Origin: Rhodoferax sp.
GTDB lineage: Bacteria > Pseudomonadota > Gammaproteobacteria > Burkholderiales > Burkholderiaceae_C
Direction of reading: 5' to 3'
Length of the DNA: 64,000 nt
Assembly (NCBI RefSeq): GCF_018780565.1
Contig: NZ_JADMJN010000004.1
Span: 1-64,000 of the forward strand
Part shown: positions 35,363 to 43,417 of the stretch, piece after piece
Layout: each line of letters starts with the position of its first letter
Position numbering within the stretch: the stretch's first letter is position 1
Made by a program: the position numbers and the translations under genes
The notes under the pieces: generated by a model
Databases searched by the model: none
Seen by the model: only the letters and a program-made list of their open reading frames with translations
What the model was told of the DNA's origin: nothing

Positions 35363-35402
35363 TTGTACTGCAGGGGGTATTTGTATATACTCCCCCCTGT
35401 AT
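35363..35402 (+). promoter_or_regulatory. Promoter and CsoR-type operator of the sulfide/efflux operon
   Basis: -35 TTGTAC (35363-35368), 17-base spacer and -10 TATACT (35386-35391). Overlapping it is an inverted repeat with G/C tracts: CAGGGGGTAT (35371-35380) and ATACTCCCCCCTG (35387-35399); the right half alone reads ATAC-TCCCCCCT-GTAT (35387-35402). A/T-rich flanks around a G/C tract are the known operator style of RcnR, FrmR and CstR, relatives of the repressor encoded at the end of this operon. Bound repressor would cover the -10 box. AAAGG at 35405-35409 is the ribosome binding site. Confidence 0.7.
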
Positions 35403-35416
35403 TTAAAGGTAAGCCC

Positions 35417-36523
35417 ATGAATTCACTTGCATTTGCCGATGTTCTTCAATACGCCCGTCGTGTGTTGCCGTGGCTGGGAGTGGCCTTTGCGCCCATGGCT
35501 TGGGCGCAAGGGGCCATCCAGGTGCCTGTCGTGGCGGCACAGGTTCGGCCTGTGTCCATGGGGTTTGAGCTGGATGGCGTCGTTCAGCCTGTGAAGCAGA
35601 GCACGCTCTCGGCGCAGGCCAGTGGGCGTATTGCCTCGCTGGTGGTCAAGGCCGGTGACAAGGTGCGCGCCGGTCAATTGCTGGCGACCATTGACGACCG
35701 TGAGGCTCAAACCGGTGTGCAGCGGAGTCAGGCCCAAGTGGCCCAGGCCCAGGCGGAGCTGCGCAATGCCAAAGCAAATTTTGAGCGTACACGTGACCTG
35801 CAGAGCAAGGGCTTCGTCAGCGCTGCGGCGCTCGATACCGCCGAATCTAACCTCAAAAGTGCGCAAGCCGGGCTGGACCAGGCGGGGGCCGGCGCCCGGC
35901 AGTCGGCGTTGACTCAAGGCTTCACCCATGTGACGGCACCTTACGACGGCTGGGTTCTTCAGACCCATGTGGAAGCGGGTGACCTGGCGGTACCCGGAAA
36001 GCCTTTGCTTACCTTTTACGCCCCGCTGCCTCTTCGCGCCGTGGTGCAGGTGCCGGTATCGCGTGGCGTACAAGCGCGTGCCGCTGCCGCAGTGGAAGTG
36101 ATGATGCATGTGGGTGCCGGCGGTGCGCGCTGGGTTCGCCCCATCTCCGTGAATGCAGTCCCCACGGCGGACCCGGTTTCTCAGACGATTGAGTGGCGCC
36201 TTGAACTGCCATCAGAGGCGGTACAAAGCACGGTGCCGGGTCAACAGGTGCGGGTCCGGTTTACCGGTGGGCAGGCTGAGCGCATGGTGGTTCCGGCACA
36301 GGCCTTGTTGCGCCGCGGTGAACTGACGGCGGTCTACGTGGTCTCGGGCAAGGCGTTTGTGTTGCGGGCGGTGCGCCTGGGTACGGACCATGGCGTTGAC
36401 GGTGTCGAGGTGGTGGCAGGCCTGCAGCAGGGCGATCTGGTTGCACTGGAGCCGGTAAAGGCCGGCTTGGCCGGTGCCCAGGCGTTGTCTCCGGCGGCAA
36501 CCAAGCCAAGCGTGGCGAAGTGA
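35417..36523 (+). CDS. RND efflux periplasmic adaptor (membrane fusion protein)
   Basis: Periplasmic adaptor linking an RND pump to an outer-membrane channel. The 368-residue protein has a signal peptide ending near AWA-QG. The lipoyl/biotinyl half-motifs are STLSAQASGRIASLVVKAGDKVRAGQLLATID and THVTAPYDGWVLQTHVEAGDLAVPGKPL, on either side of an alpha-helical hairpin rich in Gln and Ala (about 90-165). A beta-barrel domain and C-terminal region follow. It is first in a seven-gene operon. No outer-membrane channel gene is present in the operon, so a TolC-like protein from elsewhere must be used. Confidence 0.93.
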   Translation: MNSLAFADVLQYARRVLPWLGVAFAPMAWAQGAIQVPVVAAQVRPVSMGFELDGVVQPVKQSTLSAQASGRIASLVVKAGDKVRAGQLLATIDDREAQTGVQRSQAQVAQAQAELRNAKANFERTRDLQSKGFVSAAALDTAESNLKSAQAGLDQAGAGARQSALTQGFTHVTAPYDGWVLQTHVEAGDLAVPGKPLLTFYAPLPLRAVVQVPVSRGVQARAAAAVEVMMHVGAGGARWVRPISVNAVPTADPVSQTIEWRLELPSEAVQSTVPGQQVRVRFTGGQAERMVVPAQALLRRGELTAVYVVSGKAFVLRAVRLGTDHGVDGVEVVAGLQQGDLVALEPVKAGLAGAQALSPAATKPSVAK

Positions 36524-36524
36524 G

Positions 36525-41484: not shown

Positions 41485-41931
41485 ATGAGTGATTCAGGTG
41501 TTCATGTCCGGCTGACTCAAAAGCAGGACTACCAATTTGATATCCACTTTGGCGACGGCATCCCCGTGTTGATGGGCGATGAACCTGCGCCGATGGGTGA
41601 GGGCAAAGGCCCATCGCCCGTGCAGTTGCTGGCGGGAGCCGTGGGCAACTGCTTATCGGATTCCCTGCTGTTTGCCTTGCGCAAGTTCAAGCAGGCGCCC
41701 GACCCCATTGAATGCGATGTTCACGCCGAGGTTGGACGCAATGCGGAGGGACGTCTGCGCGTGCTGTCGATCAGGGCGGTCTTGAAGCTGGGCGTGTCCG
41801 CTGCTTCCCTGGCGCATCTGGATCGTGTGCTGAGTCAGTTCGAGGCCTATTGCACCGTCACGCAGAGTGTGGGCCAGGGAATTCCTGTCAGCATCGAAGT
41901 GATCGATGCGCAGGGCATCCGGTTGAAATAA
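41485..41931 (+). CDS. OsmC/Ohr-family protein
   Basis: A 148-residue thiol peroxidase-like protein. The family's two redox cysteines are present: Cys56 in GAVGNCLSDSLLFAL and Cys123 in FEAYCTVTQSV. OsmC/Ohr proteins reduce organic hydroperoxides, and some act on persulfides. The ATG at 41485 is chosen because AGGAGA precedes it and an in-frame ATG 21 bases upstream has no ribosome site. It is fifth in the operon. Confidence 0.9.
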   Translation: MSDSGVHVRLTQKQDYQFDIHFGDGIPVLMGDEPAPMGEGKGPSPVQLLAGAVGNCLSDSLLFALRKFKQAPDPIECDVHAEVGRNAEGRLRVLSIRAVLKLGVSAASLAHLDRVLSQFEAYCTVTQSVGQGIPVSIEVIDAQGIRLK

Positions 41932-41969
41932 ACAAAAGGTTGGACCATGCCAACAATGGGAGTCTGCCT

Positions 41970-43130
41970 ATGAAGACGACGGTTTCCTCGCCAGCTCGCG
42001 TGACGGTGATTGGTGCTGGCTTTGGGGCTTTGTCCACGGTGCGCGAATTGCGCAAGCGCGACGCCGCAGTGGACATCACGGTGATTTCACCGCGCGCCGA
42101 ATTGCACTACCTGCCCGGCATCATCTGGATTCCAAGTGGCTTGCGCACGCGCGAGCAACTGGTGGTGCCGCTGGCCAATTTTTTCCGGCGCATGGGTGTC
42201 AAGCATGTCAGCGGGGAGGTCGCCGGCCTGCGTGACGGTGGACGGGTGGTTGATGTGTCAGTGGATGGCGTCGCGAGTGAAGTGCGCAATGATGCGCTGG
42301 TGATTGCCTCTGGCGGACGGTTCATCAAGAAGTTGCCGGGCATCGAGCACGCGCTCACCCCGTGTGAAGGCATTGCCTCGGCCGAACGTATTCGCGACCG
42401 CTTGCAGCAGATGCAGGGCGGTACCATTGCGTGCGGTTTTGCCGGCAACCCCAATGAGCCCAGTGCGGTGCGGGGTGGCCCCATGTTTGAATTTCTGTTC
42501 GGCATTGACGAACAGCTCAAACGAGAGGGGCGGCGCGACAAATTCGAGCTGGTGTTCTTCAATCCCTCGACCGAACCGGGCAACCGGCTCGGACCCAAGG
42601 CCGTGCGGCATTTGCTTGACGAAATGGCACGGCGCAACATCCGTACTTACCTGGGGCACAAGCTCAAGAGCTTTGAGTCCGACAAGATCATTACCGAAGG
42701 TGCCACGTTCGCTGCGGACCTGATCCTGTTCATGCCCGGCATGACTGGCAATCTGTGGTTTGACCAAACCGAACTTGCACGCTCGCCGGGGGGCTTGCTC
42801 AAAGCCGATGCAAACTGCCGCGTGGAGGGTTCTGACCGGGTGTTCGTGGTCGGGGACTCCGGCAGCTTCCCCGGGCCGGACTGGATGCCCAAGCAGGCGC
42901 ATATGGCCGACCTGCAGGCGGCTGCGGCTGCGAGCAACCTGCTGGCTGCCTTGCGTGGGGAGGCCGCAACCGCGACCTTCAAAGTCGAGCTGATTTGCAT
43001 CATCGATGCCATCAAGCAAGGCACGCTGGTCTGGCGCACGCCGCAACGCAACATTATTTTGCCCTCGTCCCGCTTGTTCCACTGGGCCAAGCGCGGGTTT
43101 GAGCGCCTGTATTTAAGGAGATACCAATGA
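41970..43130 (+). CDS. Second sulfide:quinone oxidoreductase-like flavoprotein
   Basis: A 386-residue FAD protein of the SQR/flavocytochrome c sulfide dehydrogenase superfamily. It starts with the dinucleotide fold VTVIGAGFGALSTVRELRKRD. Cysteines fall at 132 (LTPCEGIAS), 155 (TIACGFAGNP) and 343 (ELICIIDAIKQG), the spacing expected of the redox triad. FVVGDSGSFPGPDWMPKQAHMADLQA is the second FAD contact. It is clearly different from the sqr two genes upstream, so the operon encodes two enzyme types, perhaps for different sulfide levels. Its stop overlaps the CsoR-type gene in ATGA. Confidence 0.88.
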   Translation: MKTTVSSPARVTVIGAGFGALSTVRELRKRDAAVDITVISPRAELHYLPGIIWIPSGLRTREQLVVPLANFFRRMGVKHVSGEVAGLRDGGRVVDVSVDGVASEVRNDALVIASGGRFIKKLPGIEHALTPCEGIASAERIRDRLQQMQGGTIACGFAGNPNEPSAVRGGPMFEFLFGIDEQLKREGRRDKFELVFFNPSTEPGNRLGPKAVRHLLDEMARRNIRTYLGHKLKSFESDKIITEGATFAADLILFMPGMTGNLWFDQTELARSPGGLLKADANCRVEGSDRVFVVGDSGSFPGPDWMPKQAHMADLQAAAAASNLLAALRGEAATATFKVELICIIDAIKQGTLVWRTPQRNIILPSSRLFHWAKRGFERLYLRRYQ

Positions 43131-43417
43131 CCGTCCTGACCGATGCTTCGTCGCGGACTGACATCCTCAACCGCCTCAAGCGTGCTGAAGGCCAAATCCG
43201 TGGCGTCCAACGCATGATCGAAGAAGGCGAGAGTTGCCTCAAGATCGGGCAGCAATTCTCGGCTGTGCGCAAAGCGCTGGACAGCACCTACCTGCGGATG
43301 ACCATGTGCTTCATGGAGCAGGAGCTCGAAGCCTGCATGCATCCGGACCCCGCTCAACGCGAAGGCCTGGACCACATGCTCAAGGACATGGAAAACCTGC
43401 TGGCCCGGATGGGCTAA
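43127..43417 (+). CDS. CsoR/FrmR/CstR-family (DUF156) transcriptional repressor
   Basis: A 96-residue all-helical repressor. ILNRLKRAEGQIRGVQRMIEEGESC and GQQFSAVRKALDS are diagnostic for the family. Sensor positions: Cys37 is the invariant cysteine; the His used by CsoR and FrmR is Phe62 here, and the CstR second cysteine position is Glu66. Cys61 and Cys70 lie nearby instead. This argues against Cu or Ni sensing and for thiol-based (persulfide) or formaldehyde-independent sensing. It overlaps the SQR-like gene by four bases and is convergent with mnmA. It likely represses the 35417 operon, including itself. Confidence 0.93.
   Translation: MTVLTDASSRTDILNRLKRAEGQIRGVQRMIEEGESCLKIGQQFSAVRKALDSTYLRMTMCFMEQELEACMHPDPAQREGLDHMLKDMENLLARMG

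What the first reader, a model, noticed from the sequence alone, without database searches (positions are those of the whole stretch)
35363..43417. Seven-gene operon joining an RND efflux pump, two SQR-type flavoproteins, DUF2892, OsmC and a CsoR-type repressor
Seen: one promoter, then seven same-strand genes with gaps of 1-52 bases or overlaps and no internal terminator. Known: SQR, DUF2892, OsmC-like peroxidases and CstR-type repressors recur in sulfide/persulfide detoxification operons. Unusual: a complete RND adaptor and pump as the first two genes. Inference: the pump may export a sulfane-sulfur product, a persulfidated small molecule or a thiol-reactive toxicant while the SQRs clear sulfide. 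I do not know of a described system with this exact composition.
Basis: partly seen in the sequence, partly recalled or inferred. Interest (0 to 1): 0.85.

Follow-up and report, generated by a model that had tools for sequence, protein, structure and literature searches.

The report
Sulfide-linked efflux pump operon
In a Rhodoferax-type bacterium, genes for an efflux pump lie in one cluster with genes for sulfide-oxidising enzymes, and relatives of the pump in other Proteobacteria often sit beside sulfur genes too, so the pump is predicted to expel reactive sulfur formed while the cell detoxifies sulfide.

Summary
In detail: seven same-strand genes (gaps 1, 12, 52, 45, 38, -4 bases) follow one promoter-operator: RND adaptor, RND permease, SQR, DUF2892, OsmC, a second SQR-like flavoprotein and a CsoR-family protein. 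Comparison supports the sulfur link. Of 106 pump loci with enough flank, 93 have DUF2892 nearby and 65 a known sulfur enzyme; DUF2892 and SQR1 are absent beside 36 other RND loci. In 148 genomes, 79 of 80 with this SQR carry the pump, against 26 of 68 without it. The pump is cysteine-free in 109 of 124 relatives (1 of 34 other RND pumps). A 36-base inverted-repeat operator occurs once in the genome, whose only CsoR-family gene ends this operon; that protein's conserved cysteines are 24 residues apart, fitting neither CsoR nor CstR. The exported substrate is not shown. It is not wholly unknown: an Azospira suillum operon of adaptor, SQR, pump and an unknown gene was the single operon flagged by fitness data with H2S, yet its deletion did not slow sulfide oxidation. 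I read this as a sulfane-sulfur response operon whose pump likely removes the SQR product: a new variant of a known kind.

The parts
35363..35391 (+). Predicted promoter TTGTAC-17-TATACT
   Evidence: Read from sequence; the same elements are visible in many upstream regions printed; not listed by the consensus scan
35366..35401 (.). Predicted operator, inverted repeat TACTGCAGGGGGTAT-TTGTAT-ATACTCCCCCCTGTA, overlapping both promoter elements
   Evidence: 24 of 25 consensus letters; its 26-base core is at one place in the genome at up to 3 mismatches, counting its own mirror
35417..36523 (+). RND periplasmic adaptor (HlyD/MFP)
   Evidence: TIGR01730 181.5 bits, cut-off 94.9; PF16576
36525..39863 (+). 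RND permease, 1112 aa, no cysteine
39876..41162 (+). Sulfide:quinone oxidoreductase (SQR1), relative of the solved enzyme 3sz0/3kpk
   Evidence: 598.8 bits over residues 2-427; Cys132, 164, 280, 306, 358 kept in 35 of 35 relatives
41215..41439 (+). DUF2892 / YgaP-like transmembrane protein, 74 aa, Cys54
   Evidence: PF11127; Cys54 in 109 of 109 relatives
41485..41931 (+). OsmC-family protein with Cys56 and Cys123
   Evidence: PF02566; Cys56 in 22 of 22, Cys123 in 21 of 21 without a gap there
41970..43130 (+). Second SQR-like flavoprotein, non-canonical cysteines
   Evidence: PF07992; best solved relatives 3h8i, deposited as NADH oxidase (77.8 bits), then SQRs at 61-68 bits; Arg168 at the place of SQR1 Cys164
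43127..43417 (+). CsoR/RcnR-family predicted repressor with Cys37 and Cys61
   Evidence: PF02583; the only match to that family in the genome; Cys37 33 of 33, Cys61 32 of 33

Best explanation
These seven adjacent genes likely form one operon that answers reactive sulfur: the CsoR-family protein is predicted to sit on the operator over the promoter and to let go when sulfane sulfur bridges its two cysteines, SQR would oxidise sulfide to sulfane sulfur, and the RND pump would expel that product through a TolC-type channel presumably encoded elsewhere. Shown by calls: gene content and order, conservation, operator and its uniqueness, conserved cysteines, predicted pump fold. Inferred from family knowledge: SQR activity, repression. 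Inferred only: the inducer, DUF2892 Cys54 as a membrane-bound acceptor of persulfide sulfur, OsmC as a thiol-based reductase of hydroperoxide or persulfide, and polysulfide, zero-valent sulfur or an organic persulfide as the pumped substrate.
For: DUF2892 within 5 kb of the pump in 93 of 106 loci; SQR, persulfide dioxygenase or rhodanese in 65 of 106; any of these four in 96 of 106. No match to DUF2892, SQR1, CsoR, ArsR, OsmC, thioredoxin or glutaredoxin models beside 36 other RND loci (34 distinct pumps). Pump present in 79 of 80 genomes with this SQR against 26 of 68 without; outside the genus 20 of 20 against 8 of 39. Pump without Cys in 109 of 124, against 1 of 34 other RND pumps. Regulators near the pump differ (at least 4 changes on the tree), and 27 of 54 ArsR-type ones carry the C-X65-C pair that in SqrR (C41, C107) is bridged by sulfane sulfur (PMC9995734 passages). 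A conjugative plasmid of Rhizorhabdus wittichii carries TolC, DUF2892, a FAD/NAD(P)-binding oxidoreductase, rhodanese, adaptor, pump and ArsR together. In Azospira suillum an operon annotated as adaptor, SQR, pump and an unknown protein was the single operon suggested by fitness data and was highly expressed under H2S-oxidising conditions (PMC5358917 passages); loci L068, L078, L088 and L090 show adaptor, SQR, pump in that order, with DUF2892 after the pump in three of the four.
Against: No substrate, inducer or transcript is tested. Deleting the whole Azospira operon left the rate of perchlorate-dependent sulfide oxidation unchanged, as did deleting its SQR alone (PMC5358917), so the unit is not the main sulfide oxidiser there; the authors suggest export of metal sulfides. 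That Dsui_3441 belongs to this pump family is judged from gene order, not sequence (the 120 rows listed and name no Azospira). 10 of 106 pump loci show none of DUF2892, SQR, dioxygenase or rhodanese, and 41 of 106 show no known sulfur enzyme within 5 kb. No outer-membrane channel gene lies in the operon (OEP matches elsewhere). 27 of 54 nearby ArsR proteins lack the SqrR-type pair. Several close relatives lack SQR beside the pump, for example L148 has the SQR-like paralog only and L156 neither.
Confidence: 0.5

Rival explanations
1. The pump exports metal-sulfide complexes or metal ions that become toxic when sulfide is present; the sulfur enzymes and the pump are co-induced but act on different things.
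For: Proposed by the authors of PMC5358917, who saw metal efflux pumps rise under H2S (passages). CsoR relatives include metal sensors.
Against: CusA/CzcA model: 214 bits against a cut-off of 701.45. No Cys in the window's pump or adaptor. The repressor lacks the His and Cys places of copper CsoR. Neighbours found were sulfur and thiol genes, though metal genes were not searched for as such.
Confidence: 0.15
2. The pump is a broad efflux or envelope-stress pump that removes lipophilic, thiol-reactive or quinone-like compounds; sulfane sulfur is only the signal.
For: The fold is that of AcrB-type drug pumps. Sulfane sulfur is reported to act on MarR-type regulators of resistance genes (PMC8614764, PMC11211675: listing and starts of abstracts).
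Against: Linkage to DUF2892 and SQR, not seen for 36 other RND loci; all NCBIfam drug-pump models matched are under their cut-offs.
Confidence: 0.25
3. The pump exports an organic persulfide or thiol, such as a persulfidated low-molecular-weight thiol, rather than inorganic polysulfide or sulfur.
For: Glutaredoxin, thioredoxin and rhodanese genes accompany part of the pumps: 18, 19 and 25 of 106.
Against: AcrB-type pumps take substrate mainly from periplasm and membrane (recalled), while such thiols are cytoplasmic.
Confidence: 0.1

Closest known systems
Azospira suillum PS operon Dsui_3440-3443 (PMC5358917, abstract and passages)
   Same: RND pump, RND adaptor and SQR in one operon with an unknown gene; highly expressed, and the single operon suggested by fitness data, with H2S
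   Different: No CsoR, OsmC or second SQR-like gene named in it; SQR numbered between adaptor and pump; sequence relation to the window not verified here
CstR-controlled sulfide-defence operons (as described in passages of PMC10318464)
   Same: A CsoR-family protein with reactive cysteines represses genes for SQR and other sulfur handling
   Different: No RND pump named; cysteine spacing differs
SqrR/BigR/sHdrR-type regulators and their targets (passages of PMC9995734 and PMC12423496)
   Same: Sulfane-sulfur-responsive repressor near SQR, dioxygenase, rhodanese and, by one passage, RND pumps
   Different: ArsR family; the window uses a CsoR-family protein
AcrB-type RND pumps (AcrB, OqxB, BpeB, MexK)
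   Same: Fold, and the paired Asp in the membrane part
   Different: 19-23% identity in structural alignments, under subfamily cut-offs, no cysteine, sulfur neighbours

Membership tests
RND permease | Sequence model and fold | tested here: met
RND permease | Asp pair of the proton relay in the fourth membrane helix (place recalled) | tested here: met
   D446 invariant, D447 in 90% or more of 40 aligned pumps
Heavy-metal RND (CusA/CzcA) | TIGR00914 over cut-off | tested here: not met
   214 bits, cut-off 701.45
Multidrug RND subfamilies of NCBIfam | NF033617 or NF000282 over cut-off | tested here: not met
   431.7 and 324 bits, cut-off 1250 each
SQR (gene at 39876) | Three catalytic-site cysteines (Acidithiobacillus enzyme C128, C160, C356, recalled) | tested here: met
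   Cys132, 164, 358 in 35 of 35; aligned to 3sz0
SQR (gene at 41970) | The same three cysteines | tested here: not met
   Arg168 at the place of SQR1 Cys164 in 6 of 6 rows; Cys343 kept in 6 of 6; at about 25% identity the register is not certain
OsmC/Ohr | Two conserved cysteines (recalled) | tested here: met
   Cys56 22 of 22, Cys123 21 of 21
CsoR copper sensor | Cys, then His at +25 and Cys at +29 (recalled; seen in the solved CsoR aligned) | tested here: not met
   No Cys pair 29 apart in any of the 120 homologs listed; no column with His in half of 33
CstR persulfide sensor | Cys pair 29 apart (C39/C68 in the related TTHA1953; for CstR itself recalled) | tested here: not met
   Pair 24 apart in 120 of 120, 29 apart in 0 of 120; C61 in 32 of 33
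CstR persulfide sensor | Reacts with persulfide and leaves DNA | not testable with these tools
   Needs purified protein
Dsui_3440-3443-like operon | Pump orthologous to Dsui_3441 | tested here: inconclusive
   No Azospira named among the 120 rows listed or; order match only

The most novel reading that the evidence does not exclude
A dedicated, Proteobacteria-wide family of cysteine-free tripartite RND pumps exports zero-valent or polysulfidic sulfur, with DUF2892 Cys54 as its membrane persulfide subunit, and in Rhodoferax it is controlled by a further class of persulfide sensor, a CsoR-family protein with a C-X23-C pair.
Probability: 0.3. Interest if true: 0.85.

Novelty: new variant of a known kind. 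Interest (0 to 1): 0.6.

Why it matters
How bacteria move sulfane sulfur out of the cell after SQR has made it is, to my knowledge, not settled. A pump family found in 79 of 80 sampled genomes with this SQR, with DUF2892 beside it in 93 of 106 loci, gives a concrete gene to delete. If true it would link multidrug-type efflux machinery to sulfide detoxification and perhaps to extracellular sulfur deposits, and would give the small protein DUF2892 a testable role.

Tried and rejected
Metal pump: rejected as first choice, HME model far under cut-off, but the fold does not decide it, since CusA structures are among the matches too (ranks 26 and 42). A four-residue insertion in the repressor, suggested by HMMER alignments, was dropped: the ungapped register with Cys at +24 is the conserved one. 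A first gene-calling pass lost the pump in 11 of 80 loci to antisense ORFs and was replaced by the model search. The blind inverted-repeat scan picked the ssb terminator in the window, so the operator was scored by a consensus instead. That consensus was read off the same loci, so 19 of 30 is descriptive; the contrasts are 0 of 52 ArsR loci, 3 of 44 loci with neither, shuffles up to 16 of 25 and the single genomic place. 11 of 30 CsoR loci do not reach 17 of 25. Naming a homolog of Dsui_3441 failed. Papers not taken as support: Allochromatium on pyrite raises Alvin_0013-0015, described as RND/CzcA metal efflux (PMC11267869 passages); Thiohalobacter has genes read as HlyB/TolC or CusA/CusC (PMC6504805 passages). 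No solved relatives of OsmC or DUF2892 by sequence at E 0.001. No Rfam match in the window at gathering cut-offs. Literature searches listed no paper that I recognised as describing this seven-gene composition; four of these lists were shorter than their counts, and most subscription papers are not held.
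Full report
What is there. The window holds a + strand cluster of seven genes between a gene that looks like ssb (34794-35294, recalled from its sequence) and a convergent - strand gene whose end overlaps the last gene by four bases (43414-44526). The genes are an RND adaptor, RND permease, SQR, DUF2892, OsmC, SQR-like and CsoR-family protein, with gaps of 1, 12, 52, 45, 38 and -4 bases. Among the nearest repressor homologs the rows with an organism name say Rhodoferax. 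The genome has 4.08 Mb in 16 contigs, carries soxB (862 bits, cut-off 550), has no second close SQR (next matches 25-29% identical) and only a distant match to the persulfide dioxygenase of L075 (72.8 bits, 38%).

Sampling. Of the 140 loci L032-L171, 135 were distinct by a 1-kb pump stretch, and 106 of these had at least 4 kb on both sides; the other 29 were left out of the counts. The sample is biased to close pump relatives: 34 of the 106 score 1750 bits or more with the window pump, 61 score 1200-1750 and 11 score 600-800 (about 40% identical).

Context. Within 5 kb, in these three groups (34, 61, 11): DUF2892 33, 52, 8; SQR 23, 18, 2; CsoR 25, 2, 0; ArsR 5, 37, 4; rhodanese 2, 19, 4; glutaredoxin 0, 14, 4; thioredoxin 1, 16, 2; persulfide dioxygenase 3, 4, 0; OsmC 13, 7, 0; TolC 2, 17, 6. 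A known sulfur enzyme (SQR, dioxygenase or rhodanese) is there in 23, 36 and 6, that is 65 of 106; with DUF2892 counted too, 96 of 106. The ten without are L091, L094, L096, L099, L106, L109, L118, L136, L139, L141. Control: 36 loci of other RND pumps (34 distinct pumps), of which the 6 from the own genome had up to about 7 kb and the 30 best-scoring from 13 genomes about 1.5 kb of flank, gave no DUF2892, SQR1, CsoR, ArsR, OsmC, thioredoxin or glutaredoxin; single weak hits (56-64 bits) to the second SQR model (1), rhodanese (2) and dioxygenase (1), and TolC-type genes in 20, were seen. The shorter flanks of the 30 make this control weaker than it looks. Annotated plasmids agree: 49 records matched, four were opened, and DUF2892 lies near the pump in all four; one of them, conjugative pIBU218, also carries a TolC-family gene, a FAD/NAD(P)-binding oxidoreductase, rhodanese and ArsR.

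Co-occurrence. In the same 148 genomes, SQR1 (E up to 1e-60) is found in 80 and the pump (E up to 1e-100) in 105. Both: 79; SQR1 alone: 1; pump alone: 26; neither: 42 (Fisher p 9e-18). Among the 59 genomes outside the genus: 20, 0, 8, 31 (p 1e-9). These p-values ignore relatedness, and some genomes are incomplete. The two genes are not always on one contig or next to each other.

Pump. It scores far over the Pfam cut-off but under the cut-off of every NCBIfam model that it matched, drug or metal. The AlphaFold model (mean pLDDT 79.9, pTM 0.73) has the RND fold, nearest to AcrB-type pumps; the fold does not separate drug from metal pumps. The window pump has no cysteine; of 124 relatives matched over more than 1000 residues, 109 have none, 13 have one and 2 have two, against 1 of 34 other RND pumps with none, that one being a 985-residue fragment. 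The control counts use whole reading frames, a little longer than matched regions. The adaptors are less strict: 83 of 127 matched regions have no Cys. Cysteine loss is what one would expect of a protein that handles thiol-reactive sulfur, but this is inference.

Enzymes. SQR1 aligns to a solved SQR over its length (598.8 bits) and keeps all five cysteines in 35 of 35 relatives. The second flavoprotein has Arg168 where SQR1 has Cys164 in 6 of 6 rows, keeps Cys343 in 6 of 6 and has Cys155 in 5 of 6, so I do not call it an SQR by mechanism. DUF2892 has Cys54 in 109 of 109 relatives, by eye at the end of its second membrane stretch. OsmC keeps its Cys pair.

Control of expression. The 36-base site 35366-35401 overlaps both promoter elements. 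It matches 24 of 25 consensus letters; 19 of 30 loci with a CsoR gene in the operon reach 17 or more, 0 of 52 with ArsR and 3 of 44 with neither; shuffles (20 for each locus) reach 16 at most. In the whole genome the 26-base core occurs exactly once, plus its own mirror at 3 mismatches, with none for the reversed control pattern. The genome has one CsoR-family match. Cysteines 37 and 61 are kept (33 of 33, 32 of 33); Cys70 is not (22 of 32). All 120 homologs listed, of 2494 found and with the window's own among them, have a Cys pair 24 apart, 107 also one 33 apart, and none has one 29 apart. TTHA1953 (C39, C68; PMC10318464 passages) and CstR (recalled) have 29. On a FastTree of 125 pumps, regulator kind changes at least 4 times when loci without a regulator are left out. 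Of 54 ArsR-type regulators near pumps, 27 have the C-X65-C pair (20 of 20 codirectional, 7 of 34 divergent), as in SqrR (C41/C107, PMC9995734 passages) and sHdrR (C50/C116, PMC12423496 passages); 27 do not. The ssb end lies within 700 bases upstream in 9 of 38 close relatives, so the place is only partly shared.

Published relatives. PMC5358917 (abstract and passages): fitness data suggested a single operon, Dsui_3440-3443, which was highly expressed under H2S-oxidising conditions; deletion of its SQR or of the whole operon did not change the oxidation rate (0.49 against 0.50 mM per hour for the operon); a separate DUF2892 gene rose about 10-fold, and its deletion slightly delayed the onset of oxidation. 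The authors propose export of metal sulfides. PMC12423496 (passages): RND pumps are listed among likely sulfur-transport genes near sHdrR-type regulators. So the sulfur link of some RND pumps has been seen before; the family-wide pattern, the cysteine-free pump, the DUF2892 coupling and the CsoR variant with its operator did not show in my search listings.

Reading. The best single account is a sulfane-sulfur response operon with export of the SQR product. The sulfur link I hold at about 0.85; export of sulfane sulfur as such at about 0.5. In the window no channel gene is present; the genome holds 17 OEP stretches over the cut-off in nine places, and one weak stretch under it lies in the adaptor gene itself.

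Noticed in passing
L211 (Rhizorhabdus wittichii plasmid pIBU218, conjugative): TolC, DUF2892, FAD/NAD(P)-binding oxidoreductase, rhodanese, adaptor, pump and ArsR sit together on a conjugative plasmid, so the module may move between species.
   Followed up: partly
41970-43130: The second SQR-like protein has Arg at the place of a catalytic-site Cys and an extra Cys155; its reaction is open.
   Followed up: partly
L042, L043, L045, L048, L109 upstream of the adaptor: A different inverted repeat, ATACCCC-GGGGTAT or near it, stands upstream where no CsoR or ArsR gene was matched in the locus.
   Followed up: no
L175 (own genome, contig 16): The own-genome TolC-type gene most like the TolC of pump clusters (322 bits, among the six own-genome RND regions looked at) lies beside another RND pump and a weak rhodanese match (62 bits); it could be the missing channel.
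   Followed up: no
30344-33718: The - strand ORF reaching to 33718, which looks like uvrA (recalled), overlaps the start of the + strand MFS-like ORF at 33408; its true start is probably further inside.
   Followed up: no
25626-29453: A 1275-aa protein with GAF, PAS, GGDEF and EAL domains.
   Followed up: no
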